Below are positions 43,718 to 64,000 of a stretch of DNA of 64,000 nt, piece by piece. The notes below the pieces were generated by a model. The model made no database searches, had not been told where the DNA came from, and was given only the letters and a program-made list of their open reading frames with translations. The DNA comes from Umbilicaria muhlenbergii (Eukaryota > Ascomycota > Lecanoromycetes > Umbilicariales > Umbilicariaceae), in contig KK106983.1 of assembly GCA_000611775.1 (NCBI GenBank), positions 5,746,240 through 5,810,239 of the forward strand. Reading direction: 5' to 3'. The position numbers were made by a program, and so were the translations under genes. The stretch's first letter is position 1; each line of letters opens with the position of its first letter.

Positions 43718-44722
43718 TCGATAAATCTGTACGCAATTCCGACAGAGGTTGAGAAGACTGTACCCAAGGAATTATTTTCTATGAGTGTGCAATAGCTAAA
43801 TACGTTAGAAAGCCCGTGATAAATATTCAGAAACACCTCTGTCCTTAACCAAGAAAGTGAATTTGAGTGTAAAGTGTGTGCTAGAGTGAGCAAAGGATAA
43901 ATCGCCACATAACAATTCATCATCATGACGATTCTAGACGAGCGTACCTACACAGGTAAAAACTTACAAAGAGCTTCAGCTTGTTAGTTGACAGGGTTCT
44001 GGAGACCCCAGCCATGATCCTGTGGGGCCCCCCGCCAAGGCTCTAACGGAGGTTGCTGAGGAGGGGGGAGGGGAGAAGCAGACACCCTACCGTATCTGTC
44101 TGTACCCGCGCTGAGGAGCACCCCCCCTCCCTCTCGGACACCCTAAGGTACTGTATCTGTACTAAACGCGGCGGGGCGCCCCCCTCACCACCTTAAACAC
44201 GCTACCGTATCTGTACTAGCGCTGGGGGGTTTTTCGGAATACTGTTAGTTGATCGAACCGAGAAAAATGATCCACCGTGAGGGGACCTCTCGCTTGAGGC
44301 ATGAGCTTGCATGACTAAGCAAATAAGCGGACGGGACGATGAGTTTTAATCACGTGCAGGCCATAGCCCTACCGGCTTTAATGTTATTCCCGCTAAACGT
44401 CATTATATACCAACCTCGGGGGCTGATTTTCATTTATTTTATATGTTTCAGGTTTACCCAATAGAGATTTTAGATAGATATGTAGATTGTAGCCTCATGG
44501 CCTTTGAATTCAATTTTCAAACCCTCTGTTCAGGGAGCTAACCGCTTTAGTTTTGAAAGCACGCGTTTTTAAACCACCAAACATCATACTTCAATACAAT
44601 ATGACATCATTTACAGTAAGTTATAGCCTCATTCTGCTGCCTGCCTCCGCCGCTGCCTGCCTCCGCCGCTGCCTGCCTTCAGCGCCTCCGCCCCTGCTGC
44701 TGCTGCCCCTGCTGCTGCTACC
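43718..44722. other. Intergenic with GC-rich imperfect repeats
   Basis: Around 44086-44235, about three imperfect 53-bp units share ACACCCTA..GTATCTGTACT followed by C- and G-rich strings. From 44630 a CTG/CCG trinucleotide-rich stretch begins. No gene. Confidence 0.5.
44086..44235. repeat. Imperfect ~53-bp tandem repeat
   Basis: Three diverged units each with a CCGTATCTGT or ACTGTATCTGT core followed by a GC-rich tail. Confidence 0.55.
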
Positions 44723-44853
44723 GCTGCTGCCTCCACTGCTGTTGTCTCTGCTGTTGCTGCCTTTGCTGTTGCGTAATTTTTAGTACCAACTGGCAGACGC
44801 TTGCGGATCATATTTCATAACCTTCAGGGGAGACCCCTGGAACCTCCCTCTCA
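44723..44853. repeat. 131-bp direct repeat, left copy
   Basis: Matches 47986-48116 over 131 bp, beginning with a CTG-rich stretch and ending after GGAACCTCCCTCTCA. About six differences, all transitions: C or G in the right copy is T or A in this one. Confidence 0.85.
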
Positions 44854-47800
44854 TTCTTTGCCCTGCTGATATATGTTTCAGACTGCTGCAATGTGATGTG
44901 ACTTCGTAGTGTGACTTACTAGTAATATTTCTCTGTTCAGAACTGTTCAGAGTTGTTTGAACACACATCCACACACCTTCTGAATGAAAAGTTGTTCAAT
45001 TGATGCATTGCAGTGTTCTTTTCTGATGATCCTCCTCCTGCATATCCTGAATCACAGAGGGAGCCTGTGAGAATCTAGATATATAAAAGGGTTTTTCAAA
45101 CATCAAGCCCTGAATCATTCAAACACGGGAAATTGTCACATAAGTAAGCTCAAGAGAGTGATCTTTTGTACTGATATTTAAAATTACCTTATCAAGCGTT
45201 AAACCCTGTGATTTGTGAACAGTGATAATGTATACAAGAACAGCAGGGAACATCTTTTAATTATAAGTGACTGAATTGACCTCTCATTCATGCTGAACAG
45301 GTATAATCAGTATCATTGACTGTTCCTCTGAAGTTCACTGGCAAGGCCTGTTTTCAGCATAATTATCTGAAATGAATCAAAGCATGCAAGGCAGACTGAT
45401 GAGTGAATCATCTTTTGAACATCACATCACATCATACAGTGTGCTCAGAGTCTCATTGTCATGAGTTAATGACAATCCTGAACTCACGTAGGGTATGCGC
45501 CCTGTAAGTGACTTGACAGCATTAATGAGTTACATGAAAAACTCTGCACTGCTTGATCTCACCTTCATTCCTTAGTTATTAGTTCTATATAGTTAGGATC
45601 ATATAATGTTATACATTTATATCTCATGCTGTCATGAACCTTGACTATACTTCCTTTTCTAATAAGGGATGCTATAATCTCACAGTTTTAATAATTTTAC
45701 CTTTTAAAGAGTGATGACCTGAGATAAGATGCAGACTTAAAATCAACTACATCAAACTTCTGAAGCAGAATGAGACATGATGATGAAGAATCAATAAAAT
45801 GACTGTGAAACATCACTCATTTCCTCTGACATCAGTGAAGTGAACCTCAAGGGTGAAGAATCCTCAGGTGAAATGATGCATAATATTAATGACAAGATCA
45901 CACAAGTGAGATGACAGTGAGATGAACTCTTAAAGCAACAAGAGCTGCAGCAGCTCTGAATGAAAGTTTTAACATTAAAAGTCAATCTACTCAGAGATCC
46001 TGTTACTCATGTTGATACCTCAGCTGAGAGATTCCTCAACTTGATGAACACTGAGTTCATAATGAGCAAGCATCACGCTGATGAAATGCTGTCAATATGA
46101 AATGTATGATCAAGAATTCAGGCAAAGGAGTTGCTGTTATATCATGACAAGAACATGAAGAAGCACCTGAATTAAATGTGAGATGCAAGAAATATTTTTC
46201 ATTTTAACTCAGTTGATTTCCCTCATGAGGAGGATAAGGTGATTTATGTCATGTAATACTTAAAGGGTGAATCAAAGAAGACATGACTGCAAGATGATGA
46301 GATTATTTCACTGTTACTTGAGATGATTTTATGAAATTCCTGCTCAACATTATTGAGAACTCTGTGAATCATCAGCTTCACATCATTCAATTATATAATG
46401 ATGCTGCTCAACTACCTCATTAATCAGTTCAAGCTTTTAATAATTATTTAAGCACCTTGAAAGCTCAGTTACCTTCTTACAGTGAAGAACACATGAGGAC
46501 TCTCTTCTTCATAAAATTAAAGTCTGAGGTTCATGCAGCCTTGATGAATTATCAGGATCTACTCACAACTTAAAAGAGAACTGTCATCTTGATCACACAT
46601 CTGAAGAATAATTTATGTTTGAGAGTCATCATGAAATTGAAAGTGAATCCTAATATGATAGTTACCTTCAGTTGCAACTTTAAGTCACTGTTAAAGCCTG
46701 CTGAGAATAAGGATCATAAGTCTGATTAAAGCAAGGTGAAGAGCAGGTGAGATAAAAAATATAAAAATGAATTAATGAAAACTCCTGAAACAAAGAACTT
46801 GTCACACATGACTTGTTGAAATTGTAAATAAAAGGGATATTATTCCTCTGATTATTCACAGCCTGTGAAGAACTCAGACCTGAATGAGACTTTGATTGCA
46901 ACTGTCTCAGCATCAAAAAATAAAAATGTTTCAGTGAAGACTTCATACTGCTGAAGTGCTGAACAAAAGTAGCTTCAGAGCTCAGTTTAATTGTTGATGA
47001 ACAAGTTCTTCACAATGATGATGTCATACTCATGCAAGCCTTATTGAACACGGGAGCTAAAGTCAATGTGATTTTGCAACACTTCATTATTGAGCATCAA
47101 TTAACTCATATAAAGAGCTTATTGCCTCAATTTTAATTCTTGAATGATCAGAAGGCTTACTGCTTCAATGTTTATCATGTGTGTTATCAGCTCACTGACA
47201 GTTGAGGATAATCTCATGAATGTGAACATGTATTTTATATTTTAAATAAGTCAGGATCACCCCTTATCCTTGAACTCTTCACATTGAAGACTGAGCATGT
47301 GTGAATTGACTGTGAAATGAAGGCGTGACGCTTCAATATTGAGGAGCAGTTTATCAAGTTACAGTCATTAAATGAATTTACAAGAGAGATTTAAAATCAC
47401 TCTGCTGTTTATGCTGTGATATGAGTCAGTCTGAGTGATGATGTTGCATCAGAGGTGTGCATATAAAGCATTAATATAACATAAGCTTTACCTGAGGAGT
47501 ATATTAATTATGTGAATGTGTTTTCAACAGAGAATGCTGACCTCCTTTCACTTCATAAGATCAGTGATCATGCAATTGACCTGAACAGCACAGACTCATC
47601 TTATGACTCTTTGTATAACCTCTTTAATATTAAGTTAAAAGTGCTATGAGAATACCTGAATGACATCTTAACAAAAGGTTGAATTCATCATTTCTGTTAC
47701 AGCATGATTATGATCTTATTAATGATGCTTTTTTCTTTGCTTCATGAGTGCCTTCCTTTGCTACGTGATAGTTCATACTAGTAGTGTACTTATATAATCA

Positions 47801-47985
47801 CAGTTCTATGAGAATGATTCTGTCAGGGCCATCATATATAGTAGTATGACAGTACAACAGTACGACAGTACAACAGTATGTCATTATAACTCACTTATAT
47901 GATGACTCAGTGAGTAGCGCCTTGGCATCAAGTGAAAACTCTTCACAAGGAGGTTCAGAAACCTGCTTCCTCAGTGATCAGTTTT
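44854..47985 (+). mobile_element. Ty3/gypsy fragment (gag, protease, LTR start), heavily mutated
   Basis: No long open frame, but a conceptual read of one strand shows gag-like blocks around 46000-46700. A Cys-x2-Cys zinc knuckle, whose His and last Cys have become Tyr, lies near 46810-46860. An aspartic-protease-like LNTGAKVNV segment lies near 47047. At 47821 the LTR start TGTCAGGGCC begins and runs to about 47985, where it is cut off by the right 131-bp repeat. Reverse transcriptase and integrase are absent, so this is an internally deleted copy. TGA codons and CpG loss are as in the larger element at 56124. Confidence 0.65.
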
Positions 47986-48116
47986 GCTGCTGCCTCCACC
48001 GCTGCTGTCTCTGCTGTTGCTGCCTTTGCTGTTGCGTAATTTTTAGTACCAACTGGCAGACGCTTGCGGATCATATTTCATAACCTCCGGGGGAGACCCC
48101 CGGAACCCCCCTCTCA
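47986..48116. repeat. 131-bp direct repeat, right copy
   Basis: Partner of 44723-44853; it keeps CpG sites that the left copy has lost (for example CACCGC, CTCCGG). Confidence 0.85.
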
Positions 48117-54973: not shown

Positions 54974-55065
54974 TGTCAGGGCCACCATATATAGTACGAC
55001 ACTATAGTACGACACTATGGTACGACACTATAGTATGACACTATGGTACGACTTGCCTCAGTCAC
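54974..55065 (+). repeat. Gypsy LTR head fragment with tandem TACGACACTATRG
   Basis: Begins TGTCAGGGCCACCATATATAG like the LTRs at 47821, 56124 and 63969, then has at least four tandem TACGACACTATGG-type units. The rest of the LTR is missing; non-mutated GC-rich sequence follows. Confidence 0.65.
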
Positions 55066-56123
55066 TCAGACCCCCCTGCCTCGGCTAGGACTAGCCGGGC
55101 CCTAATGCCCTTTGGGATTAGCTACAAACGCTGACTACGTGCGTTTTTCGGGGAGGGTCTGAGGGCGTAATCTTGAAGGCCACACTTCTGGATAGACCCC
55201 AAATCTTCTGGATAGACCATTCTAACCTAATCGGGTTATATGACCTCGGCGCGTCTGTTTTACGCGTCAGAAGTTCAAAATCACCATGATATTGAGGGTT
55301 AACTTAGAAGGCTTAGTTCCTTATGATTTGAAGTTCAATTTTGGCCTCCAAAAGTCATTTAGAAGTCAAATATATGCTAATAAACTGCAGATCACTCACC
55401 ACACACCTTCAATCACGCCTCCCACTGCCGCCGCTGCTGTCATCAATCATGCACCCCCCCCTTCTAAAAATCTAGGGCGGCCTCAGGCAACGAAGTGCTG
55501 CTCAATTTCAGCCAGCTCATCAGCCAGCCAATGGGTCACTGACTATGCGGCACGCCTCTAGGTCAGAGACTTATTGACTGATGAGCTGAAATGACCTCAT
55601 CATGCCGTCTGAGATACCTTGAGAAGATGAAGCTCACTGCTCCTGCTGACCTCACTGCCTCTGCTAGCCTTGCTGACCTCAAGGTCTCATGTTTCTCAGA
55701 TGATCTGTCACAGGGGCAAAGTCAGTGAACTGAGACAGAGTGATCTGCTGCTTCACTGACTACTTCAGCTGCATTGAAGCTCTCTGAGCTCTTGATGCTC
55801 AGTGCTGCTCTTCACGCCCCTCACCACGCCCCTGTACACGGCCCCCTCACTGACTTGCTCACTGACTAGCCCCTGTCTTCACCTCCTCTTGCTGATGTAC
55901 CTGGTTCAAAGCTAGCTCTCACTGGGAGAGATCACGCCTCACAGAGGCATCATTGAGCCTCTCACATCAATGAATTCAGATGGGATCCTGCACCAGAGTG
56001 ATAAGGTTCACTGATTGAACCTCTGTGAGTGAATCCAGCCATCAATGAGGGTGAATATGATCATTGTGTCATGGAATTCTACTGCTGAACTTGAAAGAAG
56101 TTCTGAAAATTCATCCATGATTG
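55066..56123. other. Spacer: unmutated sequence, then CpG-poor sequence
   Basis: 55066-55560 keeps CpG and has an ORF (55286-55561) of no recognised family. From about 55560 the sequence takes the TCA/TGA-rich, CpG-poor look of the gypsy element, but no domain is readable, so it may be part of an older insertion. Confidence 0.45.
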
Positions 56124-56400
56124 TGTCAGGGCCACCATATATATAGTATGACAGTACGACACTATGGTACGACACTATAGCTTAGATATGATGACTCAGC
56201 GCCTAGCGCCTTGGCATCAAGTGAAAACTCTTCACAAGGAGGTGCAGAAACCTGCTTTCTCAGTGATCAGTTTGATCACTGAATAAAAGATGTATAATTA
56301 CTGCATTGACCCTATCATGACTTTACTGCCTACGACACCCCGTTCAACATTTATATGATGACTGTCATACACTCACCCTCTTACATACTGATCGCTCAGT
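56124..56400 (+). repeat. 5' LTR of the gypsy element
   Basis: The first 160 bp match 47821-47985 closely (for example GCGCCTTGGCATC.. and CTTCACAAGGAGG). The 3' boundary near 56400 is estimated from the start of gag-like sequence; no clear primer-binding site was identified. Confidence 0.6.
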
Positions 56401-59400
56401 ACCTTCAGGTGAACGGTCACATCAGAAGCAAATAAGACATGATGACATCAACACTTCAATCTCATCAGGTCAGTGAAACAGTCAATCAAGCTGAATCAGA
56501 GCCTTCAATTAACAGATTTACATTATTAACTGTCAACACCTCTGCTTCTGACATCATCAATGACAATGATGAACATATCACTGCAGGTAATCTTGATGAC
56601 ATCATTAAAGACCTTGAGGCAGTCACTGCTCATAATCAGGAGATCATTGAGCGTCAGTGATTACAATTATGACATGTATGACAAGAAATTGAGTTTGAGG
56701 ACAATAAAAGAGAGCTTCAGGAGCTTAATCAACACCTGTAAAAAAATTCTTCAATTATGATAAACTCAGGAAACAACACAGGTTCATCACATGAATTATG
56801 ATGTTAAGTTATGACAGACATCACACCTCCCCCTTTTCAACACCTTATAAAGTCATGAGAGCCTCATCTTTATGCAGGAGGTGTTAAAGTCATGAGATGA
56901 AAACTTCAGAAATACTTAAATGAAATCAATCAAAACTGAGAGCTGATGTCAGAGCAATTTCTTATCAAATGAGATTTCATCATCTGAGCAGGCACCTACC
57001 TTGAGAAAACAGTCATGAACAACTGACAGAAGCAAAAAAAGCAGCATGATCACATTTAAATCATTTATGACAACTTTTTAAAGGTTCTAGAGAAGAACTT
57101 ATCCTCTGATGAAGACATGAATGAATGAAATATCATCACCTTCAATGCAGCTGAATCTCACAGTCATGATATAATCACCTTTTGATATGACAGATTATCA
57201 GAACTCTACTGTTTCCTTTCAGCTTCACATAAGGAAATTGATGAGATGCTCATTCAAGATTGCTGATGATCAAGGCTTCCTCATCACATCTTGACTGAAC
57301 TATGACGTTGAGATCTGATGCAGGTTGCAAGACAGTCAGTGCAAGAAATTTCAACACATCTTGATGTCATCATTAATCATGAACTGTTCTGAAGCCGTTC
57401 AGACACTAAAAAGGACCGTCAAAACAAGATTGATGACATAAACAAAAATATGACACTGACATCATACTATGACAGAAAAGAATCTTTCACTGAATAATAA
57501 ACCTCTCACCCTCAACAATTCAATCATGAAAGAGGAAACAATTCATGAGGTTTTTATCAAGAAAGTAATCATGATCAAAGCTGAAATTTAAAACACATAT
57601 CAGTTGCAGAGAAAGTGATCATGATAACAACACAGACATTCACAGGATCCTCATGCTGACAAGGAGACTTTATTCTCAAGAACAAAGTGAATGCATGAAA
57701 AGCAGCAGACCTCTGTATCAAGTGTGAAGTCATCAGTCATTGAATAAACAATTATACAACTGAATGATCTACAGCTGTCTTCACCACAGTCAATGCAAAT
57801 AAATGACTCATGAATCACTTTCAGTTTGCCTCATTACTGATTATTGATGATATCCCACGTCTGATATCAGGGCAACTAGAGGTGAAACTGCACATAATGA
57901 CAATGAGTGATATGATGAGCAAATCTTCACAATATTCATATATTATCAACAACGGCAGTCAGGGCAATACAATCACATGAGATGTTGTCAATAAGCTGTA
58001 ACTACTGACTGAATCCTATGAGGCTCAAGGTAATGCATGAAGTAATGTGATTAAATTATCAGAGTCTGTTGTACTGATGATTACAACATATGACACTGAT
58101 GATCAACTTTACCGCTATAGCAATTATTTCTTTATCACACAAGACAACACATCAGCTCCTTTTGTCCTCAAGCTATCATTTTTAATTCATGCAAACTCAA
58201 ATCACTACTACAATATGAGTAAATTCTTATGAAGAAAGTCAAAACATACTACTGCATGCTGTATATTCAACAAAAATGAAAAGAAGGAGTTGAAGAATGT
58301 TTTATGTATGAACAACCTCATCATTACTGACTGCTTTATAGGGCCGGCGGACCTAGTGACCTATATGGAAAAATATACCCTACAGATGAACTCATTGTGA
58401 TATGACAAAAAGTACAACAATGTTTATGACAGTTTACCTCCTGAATATCATGACTTCACAGACATATTTCAAGCAGCTGAGAAGCAGTCTATAAATGAGA
58501 GAGGTTCACATGATCATGTCATTGACTTGAAATCAGGGCAGCAACCTTCATTCAGAAAGTTATACTCAATGTTCTCAGCTGAGCTCAATGTACTGAAGGT
58601 ATATTTAGATGATGTTATGAAGGCAGACATAATCTGCAAATTAATATCATCTGCAGCTTCACCTGTTATGTTTGTACTGAAATCAGACAGCAGCCTATGA
58701 CTAGTCATTGATTATAAGCACTTGAACAATATTATCATTAAAAATCACTACTCACTATCACTTATATCAAACATGTTGAATCATCTTCAAGGAGTTAAGA
58801 AGTTCACTAAGCTGAACTGCAAGAATGCATATAATCAAATATGAATCAAGGGTGAAGATGAGTGGAAAACAGCATTCTGAACATGATTCAGCCTGTTTAA
58901 ATATCTTGTCATGCTTTTCAGTCTCATGAATGCTCCTGCTACATTTCAGGCATTCATTGATAAGACTCTTGATGAGTTCCTTGATATAACTTGTGTGATT
59001 TATCTAAATGATATCCTGATCTTCAGCAAAGATGAATTTGAACATGAGGAGCATGTATGACAAGTATTAACTGCATTATGATGTCATGATCTTCATCTTA
59101 AGATCAGCAAATGCTTCTTTAATGCAACAGAAGTGAACTTCCTGAGGTTTAAGATCAATACTGAAGGCATACATATGAGTTCAGAAAGGATTCACGCTGT
59201 TGAAGAATGACTACTCTCAGAGAACATTCATGAATTGCAAGTCTTTTTAAGCTTCATCAACTTCTTCTGAAGGTTTATAAGAGATTATTCATGAATTGCA
59301 GCATCACTGTTAAATCTCCTGAAAACAGGAAAGAATAAAAAGAAGATTAAAGATACATCACTCTCTCCTCTTCAGTCTCAACAGACTGTTATTAAAAGAA

Positions 59401-62400
59401 AGCAGAACAACCTGACCTCATTGTGAAGATTTAATACAAAGTATTCAGCATGCAACCTGTAAGTCAGAGGAGAGTTACAACAAGAAAACATCATACCTGT
59501 CTTTTTTTCACTCTTAAGAGTCACATTGAAAGTGTTTAATGCTCTGAAGAAGACCTTCATGAGTGCTTCATTATTACATTATTTTGATGAAAACAAACTC
59601 ATGAGGGTTGAAACAGACGCCTCTGAATTCACAATTAATGAAATCTTGATGCAACACTTCAAGGTCAATGATCAATTGCACTGATTATTAATTACTTACT
59701 ACAGCAAGAAGCTGCTAAATACTGAGACTTGATATGATACAAGTGAGCAAGAGCTCCTTGTCATCATGAAAGTCATGCATCATTGATGACACTACTGTCA
59801 AGGTGCTAGGCACCTGATCATCATATTGACTGATCATGCAAACCTTGTTTGATTTATGACTACCTCAAACCTCACATGAAGGCAGCTCAAGTGAGCTGAA
59901 AAGCTCACTGAGTATGACTTTAAGATCACATATCAAGAGGGCAAGAAGAACTCTGCTGACAGTCTGTCAAGATGACCTGATTATGAACTGCTGAAGACTG
60001 TCAGTACCTTGACTGCTGCTGAAATAATGTGACAGTCCTTTCATTTAGGAAGCAAGAATTATAAGTCAGTGCAGAAGAAATTATATGCACTTGCTGCAAT
60101 GATGCTGCAGTCAAGACGCTCAGTACAACAGAAGTTATGACAAAAGAATGTCATATCTGTCACAATGAATAATATCAGTATGATGAATATTGAAGCTGAT
60201 GACATGATTGAAACATCAGCAGTCTGTGATCTACATGCTTGAGAAGCAAGCTGTGATGAACATATCAGTATGATGAATACTGAAGCTGATGATATGACTG
60301 AAACATCAGCAGTTCATGACTTATATGCTTAAGAAGCAAGCTGTGACTGAATGAGAAAGCTTGAGTATGCAGAATCTGAGCAGCACTCAATTAAGGATAA
60401 CACAGTAAGCATTGTAATTATGAACAGTGATGCAAGTCATGTTTTTATTAATCTTTAAATTAAGGATAACACTCCTTCTGCTGACACTGTTGAAGCGCTT
60501 CAGCTCATGTCTACTCACTCACCTCTAGGTGAGGAGATAACAGCTTATACAAGAATGTTTATTAAACAACTTGAATGTACAATTCATACTGAACAGTCAA
60601 AAGACGGTTTAATATGATGAGTATGACAGGGATTAACTACCCCTCTCAAGGATAAAAACAACTTGACTGAGTCAGAAATGATAAATATGATGACAATACT
60701 CCCTGATGTAATGAAATGTTGAGAGGAAATTGAGGATGTTGTATATTATAATGATAAGATTTACATTCTGCAGAACCCTGCCCTTCACAATGCAGTGATC
60801 AGTCAATTTCATGATGATGTCTTTGCAGGTCATTTCAGGAAATCAAGAATTACAAAATTAATGCAGTGATCTTATGACTGATCTGATGTTGTCAGAGATG
60901 TATGACGTTACTGTCATGACTGTGTTGAATGTCAAAAGATGAAGTCAGCTCATCACAAATTATACAGATTATTAAACTCATTGTCAGTCTCAACTGAGCT
61001 GTGACATACAGTGACAATGAACTTCATTATGAATCTGTCACTGAGCAGCACATATGAAAGTACAACATGAGATTCAATCCTTGTCATAGTTGATAAGTTG
61101 ACCAAAATGACTCACTATATTTCAGTACAGAAGACAATGTTGATTGCTGACTTCATTGAAGTGTTTATTCAGGACATAATTAAGCATCATGATGTGTCAA
61201 AAGTCTTAATCACAGACAGAGACAAGCTGTTTACATCAGAGCAGTGAATCAGCTTCTGCTTTCACATGCAGTGTCATCATAACATGTCAACAGCTTTTCA
61301 CCCGCAAATTGATGATCAAACAGAGAGGCAGAACCAGTCCCTGAAGATATATTTATGCATATTTGTTGATGAGCAGCAAGAGGACTGAGTGAAGCTCTTA
61401 TCCTGCATGAAGTTCTCATACAACAACTTCATACATGCTGTTATGAGAAAGAGCCCCTTTCAGCTTAACTTAAGATGAGACCCTCAGATGAGCTTAAGTA
61501 GGCTGTTTATACAGCACTCACATGAACAAATAAGATTCTATGCAGATGCACAGCAGCTTCAAGATTAAATTGCAACAGCTTAAGAGTGACTATGACAGGT
61601 TAATAAAATGTATGCAAACTATTATAATCAGTGCTGAACAGAGATAACATTCAAAGAAGGTGATTTAGTACTGATCAATGAAAAGAATGTGTCAGTGAAC
61701 AAGCAGATGAAGAAACTGCATTGAAAAAAACTCAGCTCATTCATGATATGATGTGTGATAAGTCAGTCATCATATGAACTTGACCTCTCAGAGGATTGAA
61801 ACATCTATAACATATTCAACATCACTTTATTGAAGTCATTTCAAGGCACATGTCATGTGTCCTCTGCATTGACAGGAAAAGACCTACTACTCAACTGAGA
61901 TGATGAGTGAGAAGTCAAAGCAATTGTGAATAACTGCATTCATGACAGCAGGCTTCAATACTTCATTAAATGAAAGCTGATGAATCAGGTGTGAGATGAC
62001 ACATGAAAGTCAACACACTTCATTCACAATATAAAGGCAAAAATGTGAAAATTTCATGCTGACAACCTTGAGAAACAGAAATTCAGGCAAGCCTTAAGAC
62101 ATGACTCTTCAAAATTAATTAAAAAGCTGTCACAAAAGTCATGAGTCTTAAGAACTGAAAACTTTATCAGCTTTGTTAACCTGATCTCTTATGACAGAGC
62201 CTGTGCTCTATGACAAGTATGACAGAGGTTATGATGCTATGATGTTATGATGAGATCTTTAATAAGATTACTGCATGAACTACATTATCACAGACATGTC
62301 ACATCACAGAGAACACTTAAGCGCAGAAGCATTTCATTTCAAGTCTGAAGATCAAAATGAACCTGAGATCAACACCTTGCACTCAACCCCTCATCAGTGT

Positions 62401-63968
62401 CATGTCAAGTTACTTTCATTTATCTACTTGTTTTCTGTCATCTTAAATTCTTCTTCACTGTCTGATGAAGCCTCTGACCTCATCTCCTCAATGTGGCGCT
62501 GCTCACAGAGTTCAATATACTCTTGATGATGATGAGATTAATGAGTGTTGAGGATGCAGAGAGCATGAGCAGTGCTCTTCAGCAAGACAGCAAGAGCCTG
62601 AATGAACTTCTCAAGACTACTGAATTAACACATTTTGACCTCAAGAGAGTCAAGAAACTCATGTTGAGGAGCAGCTGCAGAGGGTGTGAAGAATATTAAT
62701 AATGACTGATAAGAGGCAGCAGTGTGAGGAATTGATCAGCTGTCAAGCGCTATACAACAATTAGCATATTAATAGTACAACAGTGCAACAGTACAGCAGT
62801 ACAACAAAATGTTGTATGTACAACAGTATGACAAAATGTTGTATGTATGACAGTATGACAAAATGTCATAGGTACAACAAGTACATCATATTCATACTAA
62901 ATGAAACAAAATGAAAGGGAATTAGAAAAGATAAACTTACAGTGTGTCATCACCCCTCCTGTCATCATAGGCATGTGCACATGAAACAACAACATCAGAG
63001 CTCTCAGAGGCTGAGGCAGTGATGATTGAAGACTTCATCATGCATTGATCATGAAGGTTGCAGAGTGATGTGTAATGAGTGCAGGCTGAATTGACCTGCA
63101 ACATGAAGCACTGATCAACTTCAGCTCTTCTGCAAGAGTCACAGTGAACAGTACTTGACAGCATGTGACTGAGGTTCTTTCAAATCACATGCTCATGATG
63201 ATGACCCTGCTGCACGTGCACTGGCAGTGAGGTATCATCATGACATCACATAAAGCAGAAATCACTGTCAAAGATGTCACTCAGAGGTAGACACCTGACC
63301 CTCTTCAGATGTTAAACAGTCAATTTTATCACTCTGTTTCCTCATCTCTTTCTGAAGGTGTTGATCATCACAGTTTCATTCATCAACTCTGACTCAGAGC
63401 CCTCCTCATCACACTGAGCCTGAAGATCAACAGGCTTCCCTGATGAAGATGAGTCTTCACTGTTGTTCACAGCTGTGGGTTTAAGAATTCAATTATTAAT
63501 TGCCTATATATCATGTTAGCATTCATACAATATATGACAAGAAGTATGACATTATAAGAATGTTGAGCTGTGAGCTGCAAGCTTCATGATGCTCTCTTCA
63601 TGAGGTGAACACCTCTGCAATGAGGATGACATCATGAAGTCATCAAGTCACTCAATGAGCTGCAGAAAAGCTGTGAAAAGTATGATGACATGTCATAAGA
63701 GAGATGACAAAGAAGAAACACAAGGGAAGGGTGTTTTGAACTTACAGTAAACATTTTAATTTTGATGTTTATGTTAAGAAGAAGAGCTTACTGCCAGGCA
63801 TGATATCATCACAATTAAGTGAGAGCATGTGATCAGTCTTACTTTAGTGCAGTTTCACACCTTCACTCTACATGATCAACCACTTATCAGGTCATCATGA
63901 TGATGTTTATGATGATGAATTTAAAGTCAATTGACATCAGGGACGGCATCATGAGAAGGGGAATGCTG

Positions 63969-64000
63969 TGTCAGGGCCATCATATAATAGTATGACAGTA
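63969..64000 (+). repeat. 3' LTR start of the gypsy element (truncated by the window)
   Basis: TGTCAGGGCCATCATATAAT.. repeats the first bases of the other LTR heads. Confidence 0.7.

What the first reader, a model, noticed from the sequence alone, without database searches (positions are those of the whole stretch)
55560..64000. Non-canonical RIP-like mutation: CpG loss and TGG-to-TGA, with CpA/TpG spared
In the 660 bp at 56881-57540 I counted three CpG and no TGG or CCA, while AGG/CCT occur at least ten times and TGA about four times per 60 bp. In the readable retroelement domains, Arg codons (CGA) appear as TGA and Trp codons (TGG) almost always as TGA, never TAG. Canonical RIP (CpA to TpA) would deplete CA/TG, but these are very abundant. 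The pattern implies C-to-T at CpG plus at the first C of CCA. CpG-directed decay is known in some fungi; the strict loss of TGG/CCA next to intact CCT/AGG is unusual and may mark a different cytosine-targeting activity.
Basis: partly seen in the sequence, partly recalled or inferred. Interest (0 to 1): 0.75.

Follow-up and report, generated by a model that had tools for sequence, protein, structure and literature searches.

The report
RIP-like hypermutation with inverted target preference
In what is probably a lichen-forming fungus, repeated transposon DNA has been mutated from C to T by what looks like a repeat-directed defence process that depends on the two bases after the C and favours almost the opposite sites to the textbook version, so the usual composition indices would miss it.

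Summary
The AT-rich blocks (44854-47987, 56122-64000) have almost no CpG and almost no CCA/TGG, while CCT/AGG, CpA and TpG are abundant, far beyond dinucleotide-preserving shuffles. Pairwise comparison of 30 copies of one Gypsy element and 29 of a second family gives one graded rule: the base after C (G>C>T>A) and the next base (A>>T>C,G) matter about equally. CGA and CCA are nearly exhausted, CTA and CAA intermediate, CAG almost immune. This explains TGG->TGA, CGA->TGA, the scarcity of TAG stops and the loss of CTA/TAG. The process is almost purely transitional (12 LTR pairs: 245 transitions, 3 transversions), post-insertion and on both strands. LTR, LINE and DNA-transposon remnants carry its stop spectrum; two single-copy transposon ORFs are spared. 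The genome carries RID- and DIM-2-type methyltransferases related to those of Lasallia/Umbilicaria. I conclude RIP-type hypermutation with an inverted, two-base target preference: CpA, the canonical RIP site, is least favoured, and standard RIP indices score these blocks as un-RIPed. The enzyme and its timing are not shown. Strand-run clustering, a mark of fresh Neurospora RIP, was at most marginal.

The parts
56124..64000 (+). Ty3/Gypsy-type LTR retrotransposon, hypermutated (TGA-riddled), running into the contig end
   Evidence: Pfam on stop-free pieces: RVT_1 in 58887-59057 (4.9e-7), RT_RNaseH_2 in 59463-59681 (3.3e-9), below-cutoff Integrase_H2C2 in 60723-60866 (0.0011); 3 of the 8 pieces scanned matched nothing. 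The 660-bp probe has 39 other scored matches at 88-91% identity (188 candidates, 40 scored)
56124..56386 (+). 5' LTR (about 263 bp; ends approximate)
   Evidence: Matches the 3' stretches of 12 other copies; begins TGTCAGGG
63969..64000 (+). start of the 3' LTR, cut by the end of the window and contig
   Evidence: Same TGTCAGGGCC start as at 56124; window is C3:5746240-5810239 and C3 is 5810239 bases long
55500..56110 (+). separate, lower-copy repeat beside the LTR element, partly mutated (CpG scarce)
   Evidence: 26 other matches in the genome, many short, best 95%; 150-bp composition table
44854..47987 (+). second AT-rich block: hypermutated fragment of another repeat family, ending in a partial LTR of the same type (47821-47984)
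   Evidence: Probe 45500-46700 has 39 other full-length or nearly full-length scored matches and one of 30 bp (255 candidates, 40 scored); same context matrix over 29 copies; 47897-47984 is 94% identical to 56186-56273

Best explanation
This is repeat-induced-point-mutation-type (RIP-type) hypermutation. Repeated DNA is recognised after insertion and its cytosines on both strands are converted to T much faster than ordinary mutation, destroying transposons mainly by making TGA stops. The agent depends on the two bases 3' of the target C: +1 G>C>T>A and +2 A>>T>C,G, with a weaker A/T preference at +3. Sites fall in the order CGA > CCA > CGT > CTA, CGC > CCT, CAA > ... > CAT > CAC > CAG. Shown: the context rule, nearly transitions only, post-insertion, both strands, the same stop spectrum in three element classes, sparing of two single-copy ORFs, presence of RID- and DIM-2-type genes. 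Inferred: that the agent is the host RID-type (or DIM-2-type) cytosine methyltransferase, and that it acts on repeats before meiosis.
For: Context rule: 30 copies (of 40 scored matches), 435 pairs, flanks identical; discordant fraction CGA .91, CCA .82, CTA .44, CAA .27, CAG .018, broadly alike for C->T and G->A on the element strand. Logistic fit: +2 explains as much as +1 (McFadden R2 .063 and .057), +3 .012, -1 .007; +1 and +2 additive .143 against .150 for the full 16-cell table. 30 of 30 copies keep CCA>CTA>CAA>CAT>CAG and +2 A on top in CC, CT, CA (pairs share copies, so not independent); hazards CGA 1.71, CCA 1.05, CTA .30, CAA .15, CAG .010. Second family, 29 copies: same matrix, though only 4 CGA sites remain. 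LTR pairs (12 elements, 3053 aligned bases): 245 transitions (138 C/T, 107 G/A), 3 transversions; counted against opportunity, CGA 29 of 33, CCA 24 of 42, CTA 31 of 115, CAA 12 of 96, CCT 11 of 95, CAG 1 of 86; +2 A 96/286, T 41/373, C 12/207, G 5/179. Simulated uniform, CpG-only and CpA mutation (12 copies each, one run each) give no +2 A effect through the same script. Stops: RVT_1 682 TGA/106 TAA/15 TAG in 149 of 150 matches; Exo_endo_phos_2 206/44/5 in 50 of 50; DDE_1 127/49/4 in 39 of 43, the order the matrix predicts. Repeat dependence: the one stop-free RVT_1 match and one stop-free DDE_1 match have no other DNA match in the genome and have CpG o/e .94 and 1.11. Genes: RID-type with PPCQ and EQT motifs, 69% to Lasallia pustulata; DIM-2-type, 85% to an unnamed protein, 78% to Lasallia.
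Against: Strand runs: correlations between neighbouring sites are near zero for same- and opposite-strand pairs. The same-strand excess at 21-100 bp is .008 (126 of 2000 label permutations reach it) in one family and .011 (50 of 2000) in the other, whereas 91.9% of fresh Neurospora clusters are strand-pure (PMC7296669 passage). Repeated rounds could erase runs, but a diffuse per-site process fits as well. The 3.7-kb duplication of 44264-47987 on C2 is 99.5% identical with 7 mismatches (6 transitions, two of them at CGA/TCG), and its 590-bp GC-normal part still holds 23 CpG: a long repeat not yet hypermutated. L099 (DDE_1, no stops) has 8 other matches (best 85%) and CpG o/e .46 but CCA/TGG 55.6 per kb, hinting that CpG and CCA loss can be separated. 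The 12 LINE stretches (of 50 matches) are less clean: 724 transitions to 146 transversions, CTA .24 against CTT .18, CCT 0 of 146, no CGA left. A DNMT5-like fragment at 79% shows an ordinary spectrum. No cross, methylation or mutant data exist here.
Confidence: 0.75

Rival explanations
1. Mitotic, DIM-2-dependent mutator: heterochromatic cytosine methylation by DIM-2 raises C->T mutation in repeats during vegetative growth; the context rule is DIM-2's. (Overlaps with the best explanation in the enzyme; odds are not exclusive.)
For: DIM-2-type gene with a long stop-free frame. Near-independent sites and a narrow spread of load between copies (mutated fraction at variable sites .35-.53 in one family.29-.51 in the other) suit a steady process. 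In Zymoseptoria tritici dim2 promotes C->T at CpA in mitosis, and CGA and CGC are preferred among CG methylation sites (PMC8016269 abstract and passages).
Against: LTR pairs show 245 transitions against 3 transversions, so little ordinary mutation accompanied it. The measured Zymoseptoria mutation preference is CpA, the opposite of this one.
Confidence: 0.17
2. Two overlaid processes: methyl-CpG deamination plus a RID-type activity that targets C-N-A. (Also a RIP-type reading in part; odds are not exclusive.)
For: The +2 gradient A:T:C:G differs somewhat by +1 class: CpG 1.29.18.10, CpC 1.15.11, CpT 1.19.18.23, CpA 1.21.15.07. L099 has lowered CpG with intact CCA. Amselem et al. link CpG signatures to methylation by Masc2-like genes and CpA/CpT to RID (PMC4352252 passages).
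Against: +2 A is on top inside and outside CpG; the additive model is nearly as good as the full table. In LTR pairs CGA is hit in 29 of 33 scorable sites while transversions number 3 in 3053 bases, too fast for slow deamination.
Confidence: 0.25
3. Editing of the element's cDNA or single strand before integration (APOBEC-like hypermutation).
For: Strong local context with C->T or G->A hypermutation is the mark of such enzymes (general knowledge).
Against: The two LTRs of one element differ by many transitions on both strands, so mutation came after integration. DNA-transposon and LINE remnants carry the same TGA-rich stop spectrum.
Confidence: 0.01
4. Not mutation but a reassigned code: TGA read as Trp or Arg in an AT-rich element.
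For: TGA is the dominant in-frame stop.
Against: C/T segregates between copies in CGA and CCA contexts on both strands, and TAA stops occur too.
Confidence: 0.005

Closest known systems
Canonical RIP (Neurospora crassa, RID-dependent)
   Same: Transitions in repeated DNA on both strands; single-copy ORFs tested are spared; RID- and DIM-2-type genes present
   Different: Preference inverted: CpA is the least hit +1 context; a +2 rule as strong as +1; strand runs at most marginal. Standard indices read opposite: TpA/ApT .55-.63, (CpA+TpG)/(ApC+GpT) 1.65-1.73
CpG-type repeat mutation in fungi (Tuber melanosporum CpG+CpA; Microbotryum TpCpG)
   Same: CpG->TpG in repeats
   Different: The context effect named for Microbotryum is on the 5' side (TpCpG); here -1 matters little and +2 matters most. 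The CpG-only species in Amselem et al. lack a RID/Masc1-type gene (PMC4352252 passages), whereas one is present here
Dim2-linked mitotic C->T in Zymoseptoria tritici
   Same: DIM-2-type gene; C->T in transposons
   Different: CpA target there (PMC8016269 abstract and passages)
Plant DRM2 non-CG methylation
   Same: A cytosine methyltransferase whose activity depends on the +1 and +2 bases, A/T favoured (PMC10711165 abstract)
   Different: Methylation, not mutation; prefers CWW, not G or C at +1
RIP in the lichen fungus Cladonia rangiformis
   Same: Lichen fungus with RID and DIM-2 homologues and RIPed retrotransposons (PMC12542154 passages)
   Different: Most of its transposon sequence falls to 10-20% GC; the blocks here stay near 35% GC. 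No context analysis in the passages seen

Membership tests
RIP (repeat-induced point mutation) | C:G to T:A transitions almost only, in repeated DNA | tested here: met
   47444 transitions to 2435 transversions (30 copies); 41329 to 2516 (29 copies); 245 to 3 in 12 LTR pairs. Direction C->T is inferred from the context rule and the base composition
RIP (repeat-induced point mutation) | Depends on repetition: single-copy relatives untouched | tested here: met
   One stop-free RVT_1 and one stop-free DDE_1 match have no other DNA match and normal CpG and CCA. Against: a third stop-free match (L099) has 8 other matches, CpG o/e .46 and CCA intact, and a 99.5% duplication is not hypermutated. Two further stop-free DDE_1 matches were not examined
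RIP (repeat-induced point mutation) | CpA preferred target | tested here: not met
   CpA is the least mutated +1 context in both families and in LTR pairs (19 of 436 sites)
RIP (repeat-induced point mutation) | Runs of mutation on one strand per event | tested here: inconclusive
   Same-strand excess at 21-100 bp .008 (126 of 2000 permutations) and .011 (50 of 2000); single events cannot be seen in accumulated mutations
RIP (repeat-induced point mutation) | RID methyltransferase gene present | tested here: met
   L032, PF00145, 69% to a Lasallia pustulata protein; PPCQ and EQT motifs
RIP (repeat-induced point mutation) | RID-dependent and premeiotic | not testable with these tools
   needs crosses and mutants
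Methyl-CpG deamination decay | Confined to CpG, slow relative to other mutation | tested here: not met
   Per-copy mutation estimates CCA .65, CTA .26, CAA .14; 245 transitions to 3 transversions in LTR pairs

The most novel reading that the evidence does not exclude
The RID-type (or DIM-2-type) methyltransferase of this lineage has switched specificity. A single RIP mutator reads a C-[G>C>T>A]-[A>>T>C,G]-[W] motif, inverting the CpA preference that the 2025 fungus-wide survey concluded RIP-like defences share. RIP would then be systematically missed in such lineages by index- and CpA-based screens.
Probability: 0.45. Interest if true: 0.75.

Novelty: new variant of a known kind. Interest (0 to 1): 0.6.

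Why it matters
It gives a quantitative two-base target rule for a RIP-type mutator whose preference runs opposite to the textbook one. It is a counterexample, in one genome, to the statement that RIP-like defences share a CpA preference (PMC12543289, section 9; the 130 species with strong signatures there fall in four classes, Lecanoromycetes not among them). The usual indices score these heavily mutated blocks as less RIPed than genes (composite -1.0 and -1.2 against -0.5), so RIP may be under-called in other lineages. The inversion also makes the question of what sets RIP target choice (RID, DIM-2 or chromatin) testable by swapping one gene.

Tried and rejected
Organism: an early guess of an Onygenales pathogen (note; searches) was dropped when the RID-type and DIM-2-type proteins matched Lasallia pustulata and Umbilicaria vellea best among named hits. 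The species is not identified; 'lichen-forming, near Umbilicariales' is inferred.

cDNA editing and code reassignment were considered and rejected (see rivals). A strand-run test gave at most a marginal excess. A gene-duplicate test with the DNMT5-like fragment L034 (79% to L033 over 947 aligned positions) gave an ordinary spectrum: 68 C:G>T:A, 53 the reverse, 55 transversions. The CCG and CGG cells are unreliable, because the neighbouring base is itself a target and is required to be intact; they were left out of the log-additive fit. The CpG-only simulation raised the CpA cells to about .22 as an artefact, so the CpA rates here are if anything too high. No Rfam match in the window at the gathering cut-offs.

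Literature: nothing describing a +2 rule or a CpA-last order was seen in the listings of searches of the held open-access library, nor in the passages read. Clutterbuck 2011, a survey of RIP in filamentous ascomycetes, is not held and could contain a related report. PMC12543289: abstract, passages and section 9 read. PMC10711165: abstract and start of the introduction. PMC4352252, PMC8016269, PMC12542154, PMC7296669, PMC10234303, PMC12994199, PMC5872316, PMC4595289, PMC11540331: passages only. PMC7882544: one passage, in its reference list. PMC13334192: a passage search with no hit. PMC8725592: look-up failed, not read. The supposed EQT-for-ENV mark of RID, the DNMT5 label and the index thresholds are recalled.
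Full report
What is there. The window is the right end of contig C3 of a 34.8-Mb, seven-contig genome. Two blocks drop from about 51% to about 35-38% GC. The second (56124-64000) is a Ty3/Gypsy-type LTR element cut by the contig end inside its 3' LTR; of 8 stop-free pieces scanned, one matches RVT_1 and one RT_RNaseH_2 above the Pfam cut-off, and three match RVT_1, the integrase zinc domain and rve below it. The first (44854-47987) is a fragment of another repeat family with a partial LTR of the same type.

The observation. In both blocks CpG and CCA/TGG are almost gone and CCT/AGG are about twice the Markov expectation. CGA/TCG and CTA/TAG are also depleted (o/e .17-.20 and .36-.42), CAA/TTG weakly (.70-.81), and TCA/TGA rise to about 100 per kb against 38 in genic sequence. 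Canonical RIP would raise TpA and lower CpA/TpG; here TpA is low and CpA/TpG high.

The rule. 30 of the 40 scored copies had loci (3.7 kb each). They were aligned after orienting them, and each of 435 pairs was scanned for C/C against C/T sites (and G/G against G/A, reverse-complemented) with identical flanks and at least 30 of 41 local matches. The discordant fraction f orders as +1 G .54, C .32, T .17, A .10. Within every +1 class +2 A is on top: CGA .907, CGT .620, CGC .428, CGG .280; CCA .822, CCT .280, CCC .174, CCG .022; CTA .443, CTG .134, CTT .131, CTC .102; CAA .269, CAT .066, CAC .043, CAG .018. The two strands of the element broadly agree (CTA .47 and .38, CAA .28 and .24, CCA .82 and .84). 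Logistic fits with four identical flanking bases on each side (211536 site pairs) give McFadden R2 .057 for +1.063 for +2.012 for +3.007 for -1. Per-copy probabilities p=f/(2-f), bootstrapped over copies: CGA .82 [.72.94], CCA .65 [.59.71], CTA .26 [.23.29], CAA .14 [.12.15], CAG .010 [.007.013]. A log-additive model of the hazards has R2 .975 over 14 cells, and 30 of 30 copies keep the order CCA>CTA>CAA>CAT>CAG. The second family (29 copies; one near-identical duplicate, L036, dropped) gives the same table: CCA .846, CTA .553, CAA .293, CAG .015, with only 4 CGA sites left. Twelve of 50 LINE endonuclease matches give CCA .83, CTA .24, CTT .18, CAA .16, CAG .04, CCT 0 of 146 and more transversions (146 to 724 transitions), a weaker but similar picture. 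Simulated uniform, CpG-only and CpA mutation show no +2 A effect in the same script.

When and how fast. 3' stretches were fetched for 20 of the 29 other copies that had loci. Thirteen held an LTR-like match; one belonged to a neighbouring element and was dropped; 12 LTR pairs remained. Identity within pairs is .868-.968, and of 248 differences in 3053 aligned bases 245 are transitions (138 C/T, 107 G/A) and 3 transversions. Counted against opportunity, with agreeing flanks: CGA 29 of 33, CGT 14 of 20, CGC 9 of 37, CCA 24 of 42, CCT 11 of 95, CTA 31 of 115, CTT 11 of 91, CTG 4 of 89, CAA 12 of 96, CAT 5 of 167, CAG 1 of 86. LTRs are identical at insertion (general knowledge), so mutation came after insertion, on both strands, with almost no ordinary mutation alongside. 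These pairs are separate insertions, so this is the cleanest form of the rule. Slow methyl-cytosine deamination alone and cDNA editing do not fit it.

Genome-wide. In-frame stops in transposon remnants: RVT_1 (150 scored of 877 candidates) 682 TGA, 106 TAA, 15 TAG, 149 of 150 bearing a stop; DDE_1 (43 matches) 127/49/4, 39 of 43; Exo_endo_phos_2 (50 matches) 206/44/5, 50 of 50 (transcribed by hand and summed). This is the order the matrix predicts: TGA from CGA and from TGG (CCA), TAA from CAA, TAG from the nearly immune CAG; I did not correct for codon use. The one stop-free RVT_1 match is a LINE-like reverse transcriptase with no other DNA match, CpG o/e .94 and CCA/TGG at 37 per kb; one stop-free DDE_1 match is likewise alone and normal. 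A third, L099, has 8 other matches with best 85%, CpG o/e .46 but intact CCA; it does not fit a single process neatly. Two further stop-free DDE_1 matches (C3:1094722, C5:2343492) were not examined.

Machinery. Four PF00145 places. L031 is DIM-2-type: MTase, DUF7893 and a BAH match just below its cut-off; best hits 85% (unnamed) and, over 88% of the query, 78% (Lasallia pustulata). L032 is RID-type: one reading frame interrupted by a TAA that falls in a presumed intron, with PPCQ and EQT motifs conserved with Lasallia (that EQT in place of ENV marks RID is recalled). L033 is called DNMT5-like from recall, and L034 is a diverged fragment of it. Nothing here shows which enzyme mutates.

Results against the reading. 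Strand runs are weak at best: same-strand minus opposite-strand correlation at 21-100 bp is .008 (126 of 2000 permutations reach it) and .011 (50 of 2000) in the two families, unlike fresh Neurospora RIP with 91.9% strand-pure clusters (PMC7296669 passage). The 3.7-kb duplication shared by 44264-47987 and C2 is 99.5% identical and keeps 23 CpG in its 590-bp GC-normal part, so it is either very recent or escaped. Pair counts are not independent observations, and the bootstrap covers copies only.

Compared with what is known. It works like RIP and meets the transition and RID-gene criteria; repeat dependence rests on two single-copy cases, with L099 and the recent duplication as untidy exceptions. 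It fails the CpA-preference criterion, so I file it as a new variant and do not claim it as canonical RIP. The 2025 survey of 1,239 fungi concludes that RIP-like defences share a CpA preference (PMC12543289 section 9); these blocks contradict that for one genome. By the usual indices they score TpA/ApT .63 and .55 and (CpA+TpG)/(ApC+GpT) 1.65 and 1.73, further from RIP than genic sequence at .72 and 1.24.

Verdict. A real and strong RIP-type mutation signature with a two-base target rule that inverts the canonical one; enzyme and timing remain to be shown. Interest 0.6.

Noticed in passing
window 44264-47987 and G000:C2:~6315260-6318970 (L036): A 3.7-kb segment spanning 590 bp of GC-normal DNA and the whole AT-rich block is present on another contig at 99.5% identity, 7 mismatches and 6 gaps: a duplication that seems to post-date the hypermutation of the block.
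   Followed up: partly
window 44723-44853 and 47986-48116: A 131-bp CTG-rich sequence flanks the AT-rich block as a direct repeat; all 6 differences are C or G on the right and T or A on the left. Too long for an LTR-element target-site duplication.
   Followed up: partly
window 54990-55052 and 56154-56178: A 13-bp tandem repeat (TATAGTACGACAC) in the flank recurs inside the LTR of the Gypsy element.
   Followed up: no
window 60172-60351: A 90-bp tandem duplication inside the Gypsy element, its halves about 88% alike.
   Followed up: no
L097 (G000:C3:3998400-3999800): A stop-free, 60% GC LINE-like reverse transcriptase ORF with no other DNA match, in a genome whose window genes are about 51% GC; possibly domesticated or acquired.
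   Followed up: partly
L033 and L034 (C5:2349218, C1:6527376): A DNMT5-like gene (label recalled) and a diverged, broken fragment of it (79%, ordinary substitution spectrum), so this old paralogue seems exempt.
   Followed up: partly
window 64000: The contig ends inside the 3' LTR of a high-copy element, so the end looks like an assembly break rather than a telomere.
   Followed up: no
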